Shown here piece after piece: positions 55,682-61,884 of a DNA stretch of 64,000 nt. The translations under genes and the position numbers were made by a program. Under the pieces are notes generated by a model. That model had not been told where the DNA came from, made no database searches, and was given only the letters and a program-made list of their open reading frames with translations. The stretch is from Oxynema aestuarii AP17 (GTDB lineage Bacteria > Cyanobacteriota > Cyanobacteriia > Cyanobacteriales > Laspinemataceae): NCBI RefSeq assembly GCF_012295525.1, contig NZ_CP051167.1:4757501-4821500 (forward strand). The letters run 5' to 3'. Within the stretch, counting starts at the first letter, position 1. Each line of letters opens with the position of its first letter.

Positions 55682-56563
55682 TTAACGGGGTCGAAGACCC
55701 TTCGGGGGCGCCACTGCCAGAAAAGCGCCTGCGGTTTTGGGGGTCTGTTGTAGATCGTAAACCCCAGACCAAGCTTCTAACAACTCGCGGGCGCAGGATT
55801 TGAGGTCGAGAAAACCGTCCCCTCCTAGGGGGTCGCCGGGGCGTTGCCATCCCAGGGGAATGCCTTCGCTGCCGTTGTAAGCTCCGGAGAGACTCCCCGC
55901 AATAAAGGCGGTCAAAACCGGGTCTTGTGGCGATCGCGCCGCCCGTAACAGCGACAGTCGCAGATCTTGGGGCGTGCTGCAAAAACAGAACCAGGCTCGG
56001 GCGATCGCCCGCAGTACCCGATTCTCCTCGGACGTTGGCAAAGCGGGCCATCCAGACATTTGCCGTTGGCAGCTCTCCCAACTGGCGCCCTTCCTCGACG
56101 CTGCAACCACCCCCTCAAACCCCGCAGCGATCGCCCCATCGCCGTCGTCACCATCGCCGAACGGGTCGCCGAGCTCCCGGTCGAGATCGAGCGGTTCTCG
56201 CAACCCACGGGCGATCGCGCGCGCCACCCCTGCCAACCCACTCGCGATCGTCGGAGGGATTGACAAAATATCAATAATATGATATAAAGCCCGATTCAAT
56301 AAGAGATCGTCTTCGTGAAAATAGAGCGAGAGGGGAACGAAGGAGGCGATCGCGAGGGAAGAGGGAGGGCGATCGAACGAAGCGATCTCGCGTTCCCAGG
56401 ATTCCAAATTCAAGCCCCCTTCACGAATCAAATGCCGCGTTGTCGCTACAGCCATTTCGCTGAAATGCTGACGAGCACAACTGCCACCAGTGCGAGCCAA
56501 TTGCTCTCCAAAACGGGCGGCGAGTAGAGTACCTTCAAAGTGGCCGAGCAGAGAATAGTGCAT
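55682..56563 (-). CDS. ADP-ribosylglycohydrolase-like protein, probably catalytically degenerate
   Basis: This 293-residue, mostly helical protein starts MHYSLLGHFEGTLLAARFGE. Its C-terminal part FIAGSLSGAYNGSEGIPLGW matches the AGxLxGAYxG region of the ADP_ribosyl_GH fold. Active ADP-ribosylhydrolases have an Asp-rich metal site just before this (DTDTxGA); here the residues are DPVLTA, and no N-terminal GDALG/DDT metal motif is seen. It may have lost catalysis or bind ADP-ribose without cleaving it. It is a single full-length frame, not a pseudogene. It sits 71 bp downstream of the twin ATPase genes on the same strand. Confidence 0.65.
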   Translation of the reverse strand: MHYSLLGHFEGTLLAARFGEQLARTGGSCARQHFSEMAVATTRHLIREGGLNLESWEREIASFDRPPSSLAIASFVPLSLYFHEDDLLLNRALYHIIDILSIPPTIASGLAGVARAIARGLREPLDLDRELGDPFGDGDDGDGAIAAGFEGVVAASRKGASWESCQRQMSGWPALPTSEENRVLRAIARAWFCFCSTPQDLRLSLLRAARSPQDPVLTAFIAGSLSGAYNGSEGIPLGWQRPGDPLGGDGFLDLKSCARELLEAWSGVYDLQQTPKTAGAFLAVAPPKGLRPR

Positions 56564-56634: not shown

Positions 56635-58707
56635 CTATCGTTTAAAAACATCTAAAACACAGAGGAGTTGAGCGCGCGGGGGGACACTTTCATCTAAGAT
56701 TAAAACTTCATTCTCGCGACACAATTGCTCGATCGAGCGATCCACCCGATATTCGTCAGCTTCCGGGAACTGATCCAGCGCATTTTGCAACAGAATATGA
56801 CGTCCCATAATTTGCTGAGTTTTCACCAACGCCAGTAAAAACTCTTTCACTTGGCGATCGAGTTTTCGATCTTGTTCTGGAGTCCCCAACTGCTTGTGAG
56901 GCATTCCCGTAACGCCGATGATGCGGGTATATCCAGCAAACAGACCGAGGGTTTGTAATAACGGACATTCCTGCAAAGCTTGCGACTCGCGGACGAGGGC
57001 TTGTAATTGGCGTAAATTAGGAGTGCGATCGCCGACGACCAACTCCCCGGCGCAAGCGGCATTCACCAAACTATGATAAGTCGCCAAATAATGAACCGAG
57101 AGCATATCCGTCAAAATATGACGGTGGGGATATCCGGTAAAAATCTGACTGTAGAGCTTATTTCCTTGATTTTTGCGAGTTCCCAAACGTTCGGCGCGCA
57201 CTAAATACAACGTTTTGCACCTTCCTTGCTTGAGGGCTTTTTCGCAAGCTTTCATCACGTGAAAAAAGCCGATTAAATTGGGGTCTTCCGTCCAGACCAA
57301 CCCGATGCGACCGAGTTGTTCCGGGAGATGATAGCTGAGGGAATAACTCGCATAAGTCGGACTCGGCAATAACTTCGTTTGAATACCACGAATTTGAAGA
57401 GCTTCCATCGCTTCGCGCAACATTTGGATGAGTTCGGGGGCGGCAAATTGGCGGACGCGGGTAATTTTCGATCGCGTTTTATCGAATTCGCGCAACCAGA
57501 CTAATTTAAAAGCGGCGAGGGGGTCGGAGGAAGTAGAAACCGGGGGCGATTCGACCGTTTTCCGGCGATCGCGGCGAGAATTCTGTCGAGAGGGGCGATC
57601 GCAGTTTTTCGCCGCTTGAAAGCGATCGCGACCCAACATTAAAGCAAATCGAGGTAATGTTTTCCCCCCGGGAAACTTCGCCTCCAAATCTTCTCTTAAA
57701 ATCGGATAAATCGGCGATTGCGGTCGATCTTCAACCTGGGCGTGCAGCGATCGCAAACGCATTGCCAACAGGGCTTCTGCTTGGTCGAGGTCGATCGGTC
57801 GCAAGCGTAATTTAACATCGATCCGAGCCAGATCCGCCGCTTGCACTCGCTTAGAATGCTGTTTCCAAGTATTGGTAATAATACTAATAACAATCAAAAA
57901 ATTATTTAACTTTTGATTGTGGACGATCGAATTAACATTAAATAATGCCTGTAAATTAATAAATCCATCTAAAGCGCGATCGATATTATCCAAATTATCA
58001 AAACACAGAACGATCGGCTGAGTGGCTGCAGCAATTTTACCAAAATTAGCGAGCATTTTCTGAGCTGCATCTTCCGTATCGATCGCCCGTTTTACCCGAA
58101 GCGCTTTCAAACTTTCCTCATCGAGGTCGTCCCCTTTCAACCACTCGCAGGCAATCGGATACAGTTCGGGATCGGTCAAGTCGTAGAGAACGCCAAAAAA
58201 CTCATTCGCATTATAAATCCCCGAAGGATACATCCCCTTTAACTGGTGAATAAATAACTTGCGTTCCCCAAACACTTGTTTCATCAAGCCTTGAGACTTA
58301 AACGCCGGAAGTCGTTCGATCCAAAGTAACAATTGAGATTGTTTTTCCCCTTCAGGAACGAACATCAAACTATCGACCGTATTGCGTAACGTATGACGCC
58401 AGATAAAATCACTTTCGGGCCACGGACCGACATAGCTAAAAAACGCCTTCCGATTGAAGCGCCGTTTAATACGACCGAGGAGATAACTTTTCCCCGAACC
58501 GGAATCCCCGGCTAACAGTAACGTGCGAGTTCGGCGGTCGCGAACGACGCAATCGAGGCAGTTTTCGACCTCTAGAAGGATGTCGCAATGAATGGAATCG
58601 ACATCGAATTGAGGGTCTTGTTCTTCCTGCCAAAAATTACCCGGTCTGAAGGTGGTCGAATCGAAAGGATTGACAGCTTCTTTAATAATGCGATCGATAG
58701 ATACCAC
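56635..58707 (-). CDS. P-loop ATPase A of a twin-ATPase cluster, function unknown
   Basis: This 690-residue protein has an N-terminal motif NPFDSTTFRPGNFWQEEQ, a P-loop AAA-type core with Walker A LLAGDSGSGKSYLLGRI (about 65-80) and Walker B IVLCFDNLDNID (about 230-241) followed by a sensor-like IVISIIT. A poorly conserved, basic linker (about 365-400) follows, then an alpha/beta domain (about 405-620; RIGLVWTEDPNLIGFFHV, LYLVRAERLG) and a C-terminal winged-helix-like end (QNALDQF to AQLLCVLDVF). It has the same length and layout as the gene upstream at 58808-60880. The Orc1/Cdc6-like order (AAA core plus winged helix) suggests DNA or partner loading; this is inference. ATG at 58707. Confidence 0.75.
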   Translation of the reverse strand: MVSIDRIIKEAVNPFDSTTFRPGNFWQEEQDPQFDVDSIHCDILLEVENCLDCVVRDRRTRTLLLAGDSGSGKSYLLGRIKRRFNRKAFFSYVGPWPESDFIWRHTLRNTVDSLMFVPEGEKQSQLLLWIERLPAFKSQGLMKQVFGERKLFIHQLKGMYPSGIYNANEFFGVLYDLTDPELYPIACEWLKGDDLDEESLKALRVKRAIDTEDAAQKMLANFGKIAAATQPIVLCFDNLDNIDRALDGFINLQALFNVNSIVHNQKLNNFLIVISIITNTWKQHSKRVQAADLARIDVKLRLRPIDLDQAEALLAMRLRSLHAQVEDRPQSPIYPILREDLEAKFPGGKTLPRFALMLGRDRFQAAKNCDRPSRQNSRRDRRKTVESPPVSTSSDPLAAFKLVWLREFDKTRSKITRVRQFAAPELIQMLREAMEALQIRGIQTKLLPSPTYASYSLSYHLPEQLGRIGLVWTEDPNLIGFFHVMKACEKALKQGRCKTLYLVRAERLGTRKNQGNKLYSQIFTGYPHRHILTDMLSVHYLATYHSLVNAACAGELVVGDRTPNLRQLQALVRESQALQECPLLQTLGLFAGYTRIIGVTGMPHKQLGTPEQDRKLDRQVKEFLLALVKTQQIMGRHILLQNALDQFPEADEYRVDRSIEQLCRENEVLILDESVPPRAQLLCVLDVFKR

Positions 58708-58807
58708 GGCAATGCCTCGGGTTCGGGAGTCGGGATCGAAAGTTCGGAGGTGACCGATTATTGGGAGAATTCGGGGAAAGATCGAGAAAGGGAAGGTTTA
58801 ATCTTTC

Positions 58808-60880
58808 TCAATCGCGGATAACATAAACGAGTTGGTCGTCTAATTTAGCTTGGGGATTGAGTATGGCAATCGGATTTTGGCGATCGCACAACTGTTCGAT
58901 TAACTGATTAATTTGTGCTTCGTCAATGCGGCTAAATTGGCCGAGGGCTTCTTGTAAAAGACGCTGACGCGCCATACACTGCTGGTCGATCGCGCGATTG
59001 AGTAAAAAGTCTTCTATCGGTTGCCATTCGTGTTTATTTTCCTCAGTTAAAAGAGGGCGACGAACGGCACCCAATGCATCGAGTAAGGGGCAATCGACCA
59101 AGAGATTTGAAGTCTGAATCAGTTGTTTGAGTTCGTCGATATTGGGGGTGCGATCGCCGACGACCAAATCCCCAGAATAAGCATCGTTCACCAAGCCGTG
59201 ATAGGTGGCGAGATAGTGAACCGAGTCGAGGTCGGGGACGAGATGGTGGTGAGCGGGATCGGCGAAAATTTGGGCGTGAATTTTATAGCCCATATTATTA
59301 GGATTGCCGATTTGTTCCGCACGAATGAGGTAGAGAGAATCGCAGTGTTTTTGTTCGATCGCTTCCTGACAGAGTTTCATCAAATTACAAAACTTAGTCA
59401 AGTTAAGATCTTCACTCCAAACGACGCCAACGCGACGATCGCCGCGAGGATCGAGATAACTGAGGGAATAACTGGCATAAGTGCGACTGTCCAACAATCG
59501 CGGTCGAACTTCGGCGATATTGAGGGCATCTAAAGTTTCGGCCAGCATCGCCATCAGTTCGGGGGAAGAGAACTGACGGATCCGGGTAATTCGACTTTCG
59601 GTTTGCTTAAACTTTTTCAACCAAACTAATTTAAACGTAGCGATCGCGTCGATACTCGGAAGCGAAGAAACTTGGGAATCATCGCGGTCGGAGTCCGGCT
59701 CACTCGTGCTTGGAGCCAAAGCCGAAATCGAGGCGATCGCCGTCCCGTCGGCGGCGGCGTCTTGCCGCATAAATTCTAACTTTCGATCCTGAAATAGTTG
59801 GCGACCCAAAATGAGTACATTTCTCGGTCTAGTTTTACCGCCGGGAAACTTTTCTTCTAAGATTTCGCGATCGAGGGGATATAAATTCGTCGGGGGTTGG
59901 GTCGCCGATTTGCGGTGTAAGGCATAGAGGCGGCTGGCCCACAAGGACTCGGCTTGATAGAGATTAATTTGTTTGAGTTGAATTTCGCGATCGAGGCGAT
60001 CGCGGTCGGTGGCTTGAATGCGAAATGCATTTTGCCGCCAGGTATCGGTAATAATACTAATTAAAACTAAAAAGTTTTTAAACTTTTGATTGTGAATCGC
60101 CGAATTGACACTGAATAAACTTTGCAAGTCGATCGCGCCGTCATTCAAGCGAGCGATATTATCTAATTGGTCGAAACAGAGAACGATCGGCTTAGTTTCG
60201 GCGGAAATTCTGCCGAAGTTCGCCATAATTTTCTGGGCGGCATCTTCGGTATCGATCGAATGTTGGACGCGCAGGATTTTCAAACTTTCCTCGTCGAGGT
60301 CGTCGCCGCGCAACCACTCGCAGGCGAGTCGGGACAGTTTGGGATTAGTGAGGTCGTAGAGGACGCCAAAAAACTCGTTGGCGTTATAAATTCCGGTGGA
60401 GTAAGTATCGCGCAGGTGACGGATGAAAAGCTGGCGATCGCCGCGAATCAAATCTAAAATACTGCGATGCTCGAAATGAGACAATCCCTTCAACCAAATC
60501 AGCAATTGAGAGTCTTCTTCCCCTTCGGGAACTTCGAGCAAGCTATCGACGGTGTAGCGTAAAATATGCCGCCAAATATATTCGCTGGCGGTAAACGGTT
60601 CGACGTAAACGAAAAAGGCTTTATGGTTGAGAAATCGTTTGAGGCGACCGAGGAGATAGGTTTTCCCCGAGCCAGTTTCTCCTTCGAGCAAAATGGTACG
60701 AGTGCGACGATCTTGGGCAATTAAATGAATCAATTGGTCGATCGCCTCCACCGCTTCTTGATGGATGGATTCGACGGTAAAAGTCGGATTTTGTTTTTCT
60801 TGCCAAAAATTACCGGACCAAAAGGTTTCCGCGTCGAAGGGATTGGTTTCGCGTTGAATAACTTGTTCGATGGATGCCAC
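58808..60880 (-). CDS. P-loop ATPase B of a twin-ATPase cluster, function unknown
   Basis: This 690-residue paralogue of the downstream gene has Walker A LLEGETGSGKTYLLGRL, Walker B IVLCFDQLDNIA and a sensor-like VLISIIT. Shared stretches include GIYNANEFFGVLYDLT, GDDLDEESLK and the C-terminal VVGDRTPN. It differs mostly in the mid-protein linker (about 370-415; Ala/Ser/Asp-rich) and at the C-terminus. Both ATPases keep intact Walker motifs, so both are probably active and may form a hetero-oligomer. ATG at 60880; 100 bp to the next gene. Confidence 0.75.
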   Translation of the reverse strand: MASIEQVIQRETNPFDAETFWSGNFWQEKQNPTFTVESIHQEAVEAIDQLIHLIAQDRRTRTILLEGETGSGKTYLLGRLKRFLNHKAFFVYVEPFTASEYIWRHILRYTVDSLLEVPEGEEDSQLLIWLKGLSHFEHRSILDLIRGDRQLFIRHLRDTYSTGIYNANEFFGVLYDLTNPKLSRLACEWLRGDDLDEESLKILRVQHSIDTEDAAQKIMANFGRISAETKPIVLCFDQLDNIARLNDGAIDLQSLFSVNSAIHNQKFKNFLVLISIITDTWRQNAFRIQATDRDRLDREIQLKQINLYQAESLWASRLYALHRKSATQPPTNLYPLDREILEEKFPGGKTRPRNVLILGRQLFQDRKLEFMRQDAAADGTAIASISALAPSTSEPDSDRDDSQVSSLPSIDAIATFKLVWLKKFKQTESRITRIRQFSSPELMAMLAETLDALNIAEVRPRLLDSRTYASYSLSYLDPRGDRRVGVVWSEDLNLTKFCNLMKLCQEAIEQKHCDSLYLIRAEQIGNPNNMGYKIHAQIFADPAHHHLVPDLDSVHYLATYHGLVNDAYSGDLVVGDRTPNIDELKQLIQTSNLLVDCPLLDALGAVRRPLLTEENKHEWQPIEDFLLNRAIDQQCMARQRLLQEALGQFSRIDEAQINQLIEQLCDRQNPIAILNPQAKLDDQLVYVIRD

Positions 60881-61032
60881 GCTTGCAGACCTCTAGTTTC
60901 TAGAATTTAGATCGAGGGGTTTGACTTAGGTTCGGGGGGAAAACGGCGATCGCGACGGGGAACAGACCGACGTTGCTTGAAGGAGTGACTGTCACGATCT
61001 CCGGGTTCGTGAGACGGAGGCACCCGATCGCT

Positions 61033-61884
61033 TCAGCCGTTGACGATAATAAAAAAGAGCGGTCCGCCGATATCTTGGGCGATCCCGCCTTCGATTTGTT
61101 CGGGGGTGTAGGAACTGGCTTCTTGTAAAGAACTCAGTTCGATGCGATCGCTACGTTGGAGGCGATAGAGGGCGCCGTCGAAGGCTTCGCGAGAGAGGGG
61201 GGGTTGTAAGTGCTGGCGCAATTGAAAAATTGGCAGATAATTTTCCGTTCCTAATTCGCGATCTAAGGTTCGAATCCAGCGCAAAATCTCGTCATCGGTG
61301 AGGGCTTCCGCCGATAAGGGTGGGGAAGCGCTTGCCGTAGCGAGGGGGAGGTCGCCGGGAGTGGCGATCGCGCCGGACGCCCCGAGAGATTTTCGCATAA
61401 AACGCAAATAGTTAGCCAGCAAATCGAGGCTGAGAACCGGGGTATTGCCACTGGGAGTATATTCTTCGCGCAAATACTCTTCCCCGCGCCGGGTGAGCCA
61501 GACCTGCTTGATTTGTGTTTTTTCTGCCTGAATCAAACCGCGATCGAGCAAACTTTGAATCACCGACTCACGGCGGTCGAGGGCCAATCCAGTTTGAGCG
61601 GGGGTAATGCCGTGTTCGGCGCAGGCTTGCAGCAGTTGCACTTCTGCTTCGGAGATCGGCAGGATCTGGGTATCGAGCTGCAAGAGGGATTTTCCGGGGG
61701 GAGCGATCGCGAATTTAAGAATTTCTTCGTGATAATCGATCAGATCGCGATCGCGCAACTGGCGGGCGATCCGATCGCGTTGGGGGGCTTTCGTTTCTGG
61801 ATTCGGTTTGAGTTTCGCGATGGGCGCGCGAGCGTCGGTAAACCCGATTAACTTCAGTAAAAATTTCAGTTCCTGCACGTCCAT
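61033..61884 (-). CDS. Winged-helix protein upstream of the twin ATPases
   Basis: This 283-residue protein starts MDVQELKFLLKLIGFTDARA. It contains at least two winged-helix-like segments: about 95-150 (ISEAEVQLLQACAEHGITPA, LTRRGEEYLREE) and about 220-283 (LPIFQLRQHLQPPLSREAFD to IGGPLFFIIVNG). The closing strand resembles the C-terminal ends of the two ATPases, hinting at a common interface. ATG at 61884; the frame extends to 61974 through a dispersed repeat, which argues against that longer start. It is the first gene of the cluster, 152 bp before ATPase B. Its function is unknown; it may be an adaptor or regulator. Confidence 0.7.
   Translation of the reverse strand: MDVQELKFLLKLIGFTDARAPIAKLKPNPETKAPQRDRIARQLRDRDLIDYHEEILKFAIAPPGKSLLQLDTQILPISEAEVQLLQACAEHGITPAQTGLALDRRESVIQSLLDRGLIQAEKTQIKQVWLTRRGEEYLREEYTPSGNTPVLSLDLLANYLRFMRKSLGASGAIATPGDLPLATASASPPLSAEALTDDEILRWIRTLDRELGTENYLPIFQLRQHLQPPLSREAFDGALYRLQRSDRIELSSLQEASSYTPEQIEGGIAQDIGGPLFFIIVNG

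What the first reader, a model, noticed from the sequence alone, without database searches (positions are those of the whole stretch)
56635..61884. Twin 690-residue ATPases plus winged-helix protein: candidate undescribed system
Three minus-strand genes in a row encode a protein with at least two winged-helix-like segments and two paralogous P-loop ATPases of identical length (690 residues each). Both ATPases keep Walker A and B motifs, share long identical blocks (for example GIYNANEFFGVLYDLT), and end in a winged-helix-like tail whose last strand resembles the end of the upstream protein. The mid-protein linkers diverge sharply. I recognise no characterised family. The order recalls AAA-plus-winged-helix loaders such as Orc1/Cdc6-type or defence-associated ATPases, but that is inference.
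Basis: partly seen in the sequence, partly recalled or inferred. Interest (0 to 1): 0.7.

Follow-up and report, generated by a model that had tools for sequence, protein, structure and literature searches.

The report
Nuclease-less Orc/Cdc6-like ATPase pair
Two sister ATPases and a three-winged-helix protein form a long-conserved cyanobacterial trio that appears to descend from a predicted anti-invader DNA-cutting system but here has no cutting or DNA-pumping partner, so it is a variant of a described but untested kind rather than an unknown one.

Summary
The trio is real: W (three predicted winged helices), A and B (690-aa paralogues, 50% identical). A models as an Orc/Cdc6/TnsC-like AAA+ protein with an alpha/beta insert and a winged-helix-like tail. 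In related cyanobacteria the usual unit is W-ATPase-X, where X fuses a PD-(D/E)xK nuclease with four cysteines to FtsK-alpha and an FtsK translocase, usually behind an RNase D-like exonuclease. X occurs in 37 of 386 sampled genomes, all 37 among the 47 with the ATPase; 33 adjacent. This matches the 'HerA/FtsK capture' systems with Orc/CDC6 ATPases predicted by Rakesh et al. 2024 (PMC10853773): the kind is described, though I found no test of it. New here: A and B are two old paralogue clades, side by side in 14 of 14 family members, B never directly followed by X (0 of 25 visible), with dN/dS two to three times lower than their X-linked cousins. The window genome has no X and no FtsK domain. 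83 of 86 family members lack the usual Walker B glutamate (A: Gln, B: Asn, fixed), suggesting ATP-holding clamps rather than motors. Best reading: a DNA-recognition core split off from an anti-invader nuclease machine. Function is inferred.

The parts
61033..61884 (-). W: 283-aa protein with three predicted winged helices (about 61702-61878, 61462-61650, 61042-61296)
   Evidence: AlphaFold pLDDT 86.7, my reading of its secondary structure; MarR-type winged-helix matches Z 9-11 over about 65-95 residues within residues 21-183 of the 313-aa frame, though Foldseek alone gave none at E<=0.001; 42-row alignment; start by conserved Met
58808..60880 (-). A: 690-aa Orc/Cdc6/TnsC-like AAA+ ATPase, first of the pair
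   Evidence: clade of 12 of 12 first-of-pair rows, SH-aLRT 100
59741..60880 (-). A, AAA+ domain (about residues 1-380); Walker A 60659-60682, Walker B with Gln 60167-60187
59045..59668 (-). A, alpha/beta insert (about residues 405-612): possibly an inactive restriction-endonuclease-like domain
   Evidence: order of helices and strands in the model; no D...ExK among the conserved columns; identity as an REase fold not shown
58811..59044 (-). A, C-terminal winged-helix-like tail (residues 613-690)
   Evidence: helix-helix-helix-strand-strand in the model
56635..58707 (-). B: 690-aa paralogue, second of the pair; Walker A 58486-58509, Walker B with Asn 57994-58014
   Evidence: clade of 13 second-of-pair rows plus 2 single rows, SH-aLRT 99

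Best explanation
W-A-B is the DNA-recognition and ATP-switch core of an Orc/Cdc6-type 'HerA/FtsK capture' anti-invader system, duplicated long ago and kept without its effector. In the parent system (W-ATPase-X) W binds DNA through winged helices, the ATPase assembles on DNA in its ATP form, and X is recruited to pump the DNA through its FtsK ring while its Cas4-like nuclease and exonuclease degrade it. In the window's lineage the ATPase exists as a fixed pair, A and B, which I infer forms a hetero-oligomer with W on DNA. Because the usual catalytic Glu is Gln (A) or Asn (B), I infer slow hydrolysis and a long-lived ATP-bound clamp. With no X and no FtsK domain in this genome, the trio would act by occupying or marking foreign or unusual DNA, or by handing it to another host nuclease. 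Shown: gene composition, homology, linkage, conservation, absence of X. Inferred: DNA binding, oligomer, slow ATPase, anti-invader role.
For: A models as Orc/Cdc6/TnsC-like AAA+. W reads as three winged helices. Parent unit W-ATPase-X: X (nuclease plus FtsK) in 37 of 386 genomes, all 37 among the 47 with the ATPase at E<1e-30 (hand counts); ATPase and X adjacent in 33 (W beside them in 32; the G220 contig starts inside the ATPase), in one cluster but not adjacent in G144, elsewhere in the same genome in G064, G114, G245. Pfam on three X proteins: FtsK_SpoIIIE and FtsK_alpha in 3 of 3, PDDEXK_1 and DNA_pol_A_exo1 in 2 of 3; the third still matches Cas4 models. Nuclease Asp and Lys 57 of 57, Glu 56 of 57, four Cys 57 of 57. 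X matches PADLOC SspH at 4e-63 to 4e-68 and mad8 at 2e-27 to 9e-29 over the FtsK part. 9 of 57 ATPases match the NCBIfam model DS41_1 'anti-phage protein', far below its cut-off. A W-A-X unit sits on a conjugative plasmid. A and B are separate clades, each with its own fixed Walker B residue, with low dN/dS that does not rise in genomes without X.
Against: I found no experiment on any member. The chromosomal place of many copies looks vertically inherited (the same glycosyltransferase and ParA neighbours in distant genomes), and A and B are as constrained as neighbouring metabolic genes, which is not typical of defence genes. The insert of A was not shown to be a restriction-endonuclease fold. 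W shows no detectable homology to SspG/DndG. RdrA, a plant NLR and BrxC score within 1-3 Z of the best Orc rows, and A narrowly passes the Pfam cut-off for KAP_NTPase (22.4 against 20), so the Orc/Cdc6 placing inside this AAA+/STAND-like group is not exclusive. Three of 46 X-linked ATPases carry Glu in Walker B. No relative in viral contigs or phages.
Confidence: 0.55

Rival explanations
1. W-A-B has been domesticated for a chromosomal job (DNA compaction, replication control or segregation) and no longer takes part in defence.
For: A and B present in 14 of 14 family genomes, the window's included, while X is in 9 of 14; median dN/dS of A and B 0.062 and 0.072 against 0.173 and 0.131 for the X-linked ATPase and X, inside the range 0.044-0.144 of four neighbouring genes; A and B each one old lineage.
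Against: DnaA is present in 14 of 14, so it is not the sole initiator. The family is absent from most of the phylum sample (found in 47 of 386), so the job is not general. No expression or phenotype data.
Confidence: 0.25
2. W-A-B is still a restriction system whose nuclease acts in trans, for example the DUF1802/restriction-endonuclease-like protein of the second, distantly homologous W'-A'-nuclease locus in the same genome.
For: Own genome holds W' (E 3.2e-6 to the W profile) and A' beside a 493-aa DUF1802 protein; A and A' match by profile at 99.2%, W and W' at 94.8%. G064, G114 and G245 keep W-A and X apart in one genome.
Against: The second locus already has its own W' and A', only 26% identical to A. 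Whether this nuclease follows W-A-B across genomes was not tested.
Confidence: 0.12
3. W-A-B is a decaying remnant left after X was lost.
For: No X and no FtsK_SpoIIIE domain in the window genome.
Against: Open frames full length; dN/dS of A 0.056-0.095 and B 0.041-0.078 among three X-less relatives, against 0.051-0.093 and 0.053-0.072 among three X-bearing ones; where both occur, X stands with its own W and ATPase.
Confidence: 0.04

Closest known systems
Orc/CDC6-coupled 'HerA/FtsK capture' systems (Rakesh, Aravind, Krishnan, NAR 2024, PMC10853773)
   Same: Orc/CDC6 AAA+ with a domain between AAA+ and C-terminal winged helix, a separate multi-winged-helix protein, and in relatives an active nuclease plus FtsK-alpha/FtsK, sometimes with a 3'-5' exonuclease (text read; domains).
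   Different: The window locus has no nuclease or FtsK; it has two ATPase paralogues with Walker B Gln and Asn. The paper mentions a second Orc/CDC6 with disrupted Walker B beside a KAP NTPase; no separate KAP gene was seen beside this trio, though A itself scores just over the KAP_NTPase cut-off. The word cyanobacteria does not occur in its main text.
DndFGH / SspFGH restriction modules
   Same: Three-gene logic; the FtsK part of X matches SspH; multi-winged-helix partner.
   Different: A matches SspF only over the P-loop; W does not match SspG; X matches only about positions 1362-1741 of the 1766-position SspH profile.
Archaeal and eukaryotic Orc1/Cdc6, and TnsC
   Same: AAA+ fold, best rows Z 12-14, typically about 230-260 residues at 3.5-4.5 A.
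   Different: Extra insert of about 200 residues, missing Walker B Glu, winged-helix partner gene, no origin role shown; DnaA present.
RADAR RdrA, BREX BrxC and STAND ATPases (plant NLR)
   Same: Related AAA+ fold: RdrA Z 13.0, NLR 12.3, BrxC 11.3; RdrA and the NLR are tied with Orc rows or nearly so.
   Different: No partner gene of RADAR or BREX was recognised beside the trio: the two flanking genes are ADP_ribosyl_GH-like and a histidine kinase.
DS-41 (DefensePredictor, PMC13092281)
   Same: NCBIfam model DS41_1_antiphage matches 9 of 57 ATPases, one seen in detail at 3.6e-9 over residues 55-255; the paper names DS-41 among 31 validated systems (passage). That the model and the paper mean the same system is inferred from the name.
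   Different: 36 bits against a cut-off of 370; A and B of the window do not match.

Membership tests
Orc/CDC6-coupled HerA/FtsK capture system | Orc/CDC6-clade AAA+ ATPase | tested here: met
   A model: top Foldseek and VIA-align matches are mostly Orc/Cdc6 and TnsC, Z 12-14; Arg at the sensor-2-like position 57 of 57. Not exclusive: RdrA and an NLR score nearly as high, and KAP_NTPase is narrowly passed by A
Orc/CDC6-coupled HerA/FtsK capture system | inactive restriction-endonuclease domain between AAA+ and the C-terminal winged helix | tested here: inconclusive
   An alpha/beta insert sits there with no conserved D...ExK, but it was not folded alone and does not match the X nuclease profile
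Orc/CDC6-coupled HerA/FtsK capture system | C-terminal winged helix on the ATPase | tested here: met
   Three helices and two strands at residues 616-687, pLDDT mostly 80-90; judged from secondary structure, not by a search with the tail alone
Orc/CDC6-coupled HerA/FtsK capture system | partner protein with 2-4 winged helices | tested here: met
   Three winged helices read in the W model; MarR-type matches in its first part
Orc/CDC6-coupled HerA/FtsK capture system | active nuclease and HerA/FtsK translocase in the same locus | tested here: not met
   Window genome: X search finds only an RNase D-like match; FtsK_SpoIIIE 0 matches while the control rings in 10 of 14 genomes. In relatives: ATPase and X adjacent in 33 of 37 genomes with X
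KAP P-loop NTPases (Pfam PF07693) | score over the Pfam cut-off of 20 bits | tested here: inconclusive
   A 22.4 bits (over), B 17.2 bits (under)
DndFGH / SspFGH | DndF/SspF P-loop subunit | tested here: not met
   Profile comparison A against 6 SspF rows: probability 5.9, P-loop only
DndFGH / SspFGH | DndG/SspG subunit | tested here: inconclusive
   W against a profile of 7 SspG rows: probability 0.1; such proteins evolve fast
DndFGH / SspFGH | DndH/SspH with C-terminal FtsK | tested here: not met
   No FtsK_SpoIIIE match in the window genome
Orc1/Cdc6 replication initiator | binds and opens a replication origin | not testable with these tools
   DnaA present in 14 of 14 family genomes
DS-41 anti-phage protein (NCBIfam NF053860) | score over the model's cut-off of 370 bits | tested here: not met
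   36 bits for L085:10001-12076; 9 of 57 members match at 0.001

The most novel reading that the evidence does not exclude
A bacterial, nuclease-free Orc-like complex: two Orc/Cdc6-clade subunits with distinct, fixed Walker B substitutions (Gln and Asn) plus a triple winged-helix protein form an ATP-locked clamp that recognises DNA and blocks or marks it without cutting, having been split from a restriction machine and kept across at least two cyanobacterial families.
Probability: 0.3. Interest if true: 0.75.

Novelty: new variant of a known kind. Interest (0 to 1): 0.5.

Why it matters
The parent class has been predicted but, in what I could search, not tested. This family gives natural experiments: the same ATPase and winged-helix module with an FtsK-nuclease (W-ATPase-X), with a different nuclease (second locus), and with none (W-A-B). 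If the X-less trio still protects cells, defence by DNA clamping without cutting would be shown; if it serves the chromosome, it would be a case of an immune machine turned into a cellular DNA-binding complex.

Tried and rejected
Family libraries on the three window proteins: only generic P-loop models pass a cut-off (AAA_16 for B; AAA_22 and KAP_NTPase, narrowly, for A); nothing passes for W, and no NCBIfam model passes; PADLOC gives only weak matches (A1 and A2 members). No PDB sequence relative of A. No relative in viral contigs or phages. Replacement replication initiator: disfavoured by DnaA in 14 of 14. Homology of the tail of A to the end of W: not supported. Homology of the A insert to the X nuclease: not supported. 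DndFGH membership: not supported. Promoters and terminators: no more than in shuffles. Sll1717-family ATPase: 32 of 57 members match at 0.001, best 6.6e-13; the three matches seen in detail are under its 75-bit cut-off; a paper search for Sll1717 found nothing. Literature searches for the trio or for Orc/FtsK capture systems; nothing closer than PMC10853773 (PMC12839542 describes a BREX-related HerA/FtsK system with an Orc/Cdc6 protein, passages). Papers: PMC10853773 outline, passages and sections 19, 22, 26 read; PMC12839542 and PMC13092281 passages only; all others search listing only. Supplements were not seen, so the cyanobacterial trio may be listed there.

What the counts leave out: one search scored at most 3 first-look candidates per genome; 29 further genomes of its 76 match only weakly (distant relatives) and are not in the 47. 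G397 counts among the 47 though its ATPase and X are broken. Of the 37 X genomes, G317 has an interrupted X, G380 one in-frame stop in the match, and G114, G134, G172 and G290 lack all or most of the exonuclease. G212 (exonuclease only, 186 aa) and G332 (nuclease only, 301 aa) count as lacking X; G055 and G037 hold FtsK fragments of X without a close ATPase. The tree used 86 of 127 sequences after removing those 88% or more identical, plus 2 outgroups, by the quick method. Alignment A1 used 57 of the 59 non-redundant ATPases (L003 and L090 left out), A2 42 of 44 W rows (L069 and L017 left out). dN/dS pairs with dS outside 0.05-1.5 were dropped (ParB gene: 11 of 21 pairs used); some frames carry a mechanical upstream extension. 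One planned control gene was not computed.
Full report
What is there. Three minus-strand genes lie in order W, A, B with gaps of 152 bases (W-A) and 100 bases (A-B). A and B are both 690 aa and 50% identical; equal length is a coincidence, since other A copies run from 674 to 736 aa and B copies from 669 to 725. W starts best at the Met conserved in relatives, so it spans 61033-61884. Only generic P-loop models pass a Pfam cut-off: AAA_16 for B, AAA_22 and, narrowly, KAP_NTPase for A. Downstream of B, 71 bases away, is an ADP-ribosylglycohydrolase-like gene, and upstream of W a GAF-histidine kinase. BLAST with both against the ORFs of the fetched loci found the first only in the window genome itself, and kinase relatives in L068, L070, L082 and L092, none adjacent to the trio.

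Anatomy. The AlphaFold model of A (57 homologues, pLDDT 87.8) has an AAA+ domain, a disordered linker, an alpha/beta insert at about 405-612 and a C-terminal helix-helix-helix-strand-strand tail. Best structural matches are mostly Orc/Cdc6 and TnsC, Z 12-14, typically 230-260 residues at 3.5-4.5 A, with RdrA (13.0), a plant NLR (12.3) and BrxC (11.3) close behind; rows within 1 of each other are tied, and Foldseek E-values are modest (best 1.2e-4). So A belongs in the Orc/Cdc6/TnsC/STAND-like AAA+ group rather than to one named member. I read three winged helices in W; MarR-type domains match within its residues 21-183 (313-aa frame) at Z 9-11 over about 65-95 residues, while Foldseek alone found nothing at E<=0.001.

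An unusual active site. Across 57 non-redundant members the Walker A Lys, the Walker B Asp and an Arg at the sensor-2-like position are invariant, but the position after the Asp is Gln 32, Asn 24, His 1, never Glu. In the wider set of 86 it is Gln in 12 of 12 A rows, Asn in 13 of 13 B rows, Gln 30, Asn 12, Glu 3, His 1 among 46 X-linked rows, and Gln 8, Asn 7 among 15 single rows. That this position equals the catalytic Glu of Orc/Cdc6 is read from the motif (recalled), and slow hydrolysis is inference; the Asp three residues on is kept in all 25 A and B rows and might serve instead. In the second locus of the genome the residue is Arg, and in its relative in L181 it is Glu.

Relatives and gene order. 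A matches at E<1e-30 in 47 of 386 genomes drawn across the phylum, all from the window genome's own order (hand count). Its usual partner is X, taken here as nuclease plus FtsK parts. X is found in 37 of 386 genomes (hand count), all 37 among the 47; chance would be about 8e-43 if genomes were independent, which they are not. Gene order was mapped for all 37: ATPase and X adjacent in 33, with W beside them in 32 (the G220 contig starts inside the ATPase); in G144 X lies in the same cluster, parted from the ATPase by a small gene and with an extra nuclease-like copy; in G064, G114 and G245 it lies elsewhere in the genome. The ten without X are G000 (the window genome), G085, G122, G131, G132, G212, G243, G318, G332 and G397. 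A W-ATPase-X unit also lies on the conjugative plasmid NC_019690.1 of Pseudanabaena PCC 7367, the only one of 72,556 plasmid records with a match to A.

What X is. Pfam on three X proteins gives FtsK_SpoIIIE and FtsK_alpha in all three, PDDEXK_1 and DNA_pol_A_exo1 in two; the third still matches Cas4 models. In an alignment of 57 X proteins the nuclease Asp and Lys are in 57 of 57, Glu in 56 of 57, the four Cys in 57 of 57, and the FtsK Walker residues in every row that reaches them; the exonuclease acidic residues and Tyr are in every row that covers them, 7 rows lacking the domain. The FtsK part matches PADLOC SspH and mad8. X is therefore a probable translocating nuclease; activity is untested.

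The kind is known. PMC10853773 (sections 22 and 26) predicts anti-invader operons with an Orc/CDC6 ATPase, an inactive REase between its AAA+ and winged helix, an active REase, HerA/FtsK (some with FtsK-alpha), sometimes a 3'-5' exonuclease, and sometimes a separate protein with 2-4 winged helices. W-ATPase-X fits this description, except that I could not show that the insert is an REase fold. W is not detectably homologous to SspG, and A matches SspF only at the P-loop.

What differs here. In the window genome X is absent and so is any FtsK_SpoIIIE match; the cyanobacterium Synechococcus elongatus, one of the 14 control genomes, does not ring either, so lack of that domain is not odd in itself. 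A and B form two clades, A with all 12 first-of-pair rows (SH-aLRT 100) and B with all 13 second-of-pair rows plus two single ones (99); both nest beside X-linked rows, and whether A and B are sisters is not resolved. B is never directly followed by X: 0 of 25 with a visible neighbour, 2 more at contig ends. Within the family, A and B are in 14 of 14 genomes, the window's included (two B copies cut by contig ends), and X in 9 of 14 (the copy in G013 shows no exonuclease match). In loci of seven genomes of one genus (g3) the median dN/dS is 0.062 for A, 0.072 for B and 0.142 for W, against 0.173 for the X-linked ATPase, 0.131 for X and 0.201 for its W, the last three from 4 genomes. Neighbouring genes as controls gave 0.044, 0.066, 0.144 and 0.142. 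A and B are no less constrained in three genomes without X than in three with it. So the trio is kept for something it does without X.

A second locus. The window genome holds a distant relative at G000:C1 about 4.36 Mb (L182): W' (245 aa), A' (599 aa) and a 493-aa DUF1802 protein whose second half reads by eye like an active restriction endonuclease. Profiles match: A to A' 99.2%, W to W' 94.8%, with only two rows on the second side. The W-ATPase module thus appears with at least two kinds of nuclease and, as W-A-B, with none.

Mechanism. I read W-A-B as the recognition core of an anti-invader machine: W and the ATPase pair bind DNA, ATP holds them there, and in the parent system X is called in to pump and cut. 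Without X the trio would clamp, mark or hand over DNA. Shown: composition, homology, linkage, conservation, absence of X. Inferred: DNA binding, A-B pairing, slow hydrolysis, target, anti-invader role. The main rival is a chromosomal role, favoured by the low dN/dS and fixed presence; DnaA in 14 of 14 genomes makes a replacement initiator unlikely.

Verdict. A real, conserved unit under purifying selection; not an unknown system but an effector-less variant of a predicted and, in what I could search, untested class. Interest 0.5; the nuclease-free Orc-like clamp, if true, would deserve 0.75.

Noticed in passing
L182:5796-13832 (G000:C1, about 4.358-4.366 Mb, own genome): Second, distant W'-A'-nuclease locus: W' 245 aa, A' 599 aa, DUF1802 protein 493 aa with an endonuclease-like second half (read by eye), and a further AAA-type ATPase of 685 aa upstream.
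   Followed up: partly
window 55682-56563 and L182:4545-5477: An ADP-ribosylglycohydrolase-like gene lies just downstream of B (only the last part of the Pfam model matches) and a full-length one lies beside the second locus. Coincidence or link not tested.
   Followed up: no
L183:12090-14359, L117:6746-8859, L119:11356-13523 and others: A gene fusing an HSDR_N-like domain to a ParA ATPase, with a ParB_N gene next to it, sits convergent to the ATPase genes in many relatives; dN/dS about 0.24-0.27. The window genome has a copy elsewhere, at G000:C1:5237606.
   Followed up: partly
L083:14759-15655 and many others: A ParA-like ATPase of about 294-309 aa follows X in many genomes; where X is apart from W-A it is near X in L126 but not seen in L124 or L163.
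   Followed up: no
own genome G000: No FtsK_SpoIIIE (PF01580) match anywhere in a single-contig genome rated 100% complete; the control rings in 10 of 14 known genomes, Synechococcus elongatus not among them.
   Followed up: no
L109:1-10762: SspFGH locus in a member of the same phylum in which SspF is fused behind two protein-kinase domains.
   Followed up: no
L121:8135-8695, L122:8309-9214, L178: Genomes with X reduced to the exonuclease alone, to the nuclease alone, or to fragments beside a broken ATPase.
   Followed up: no
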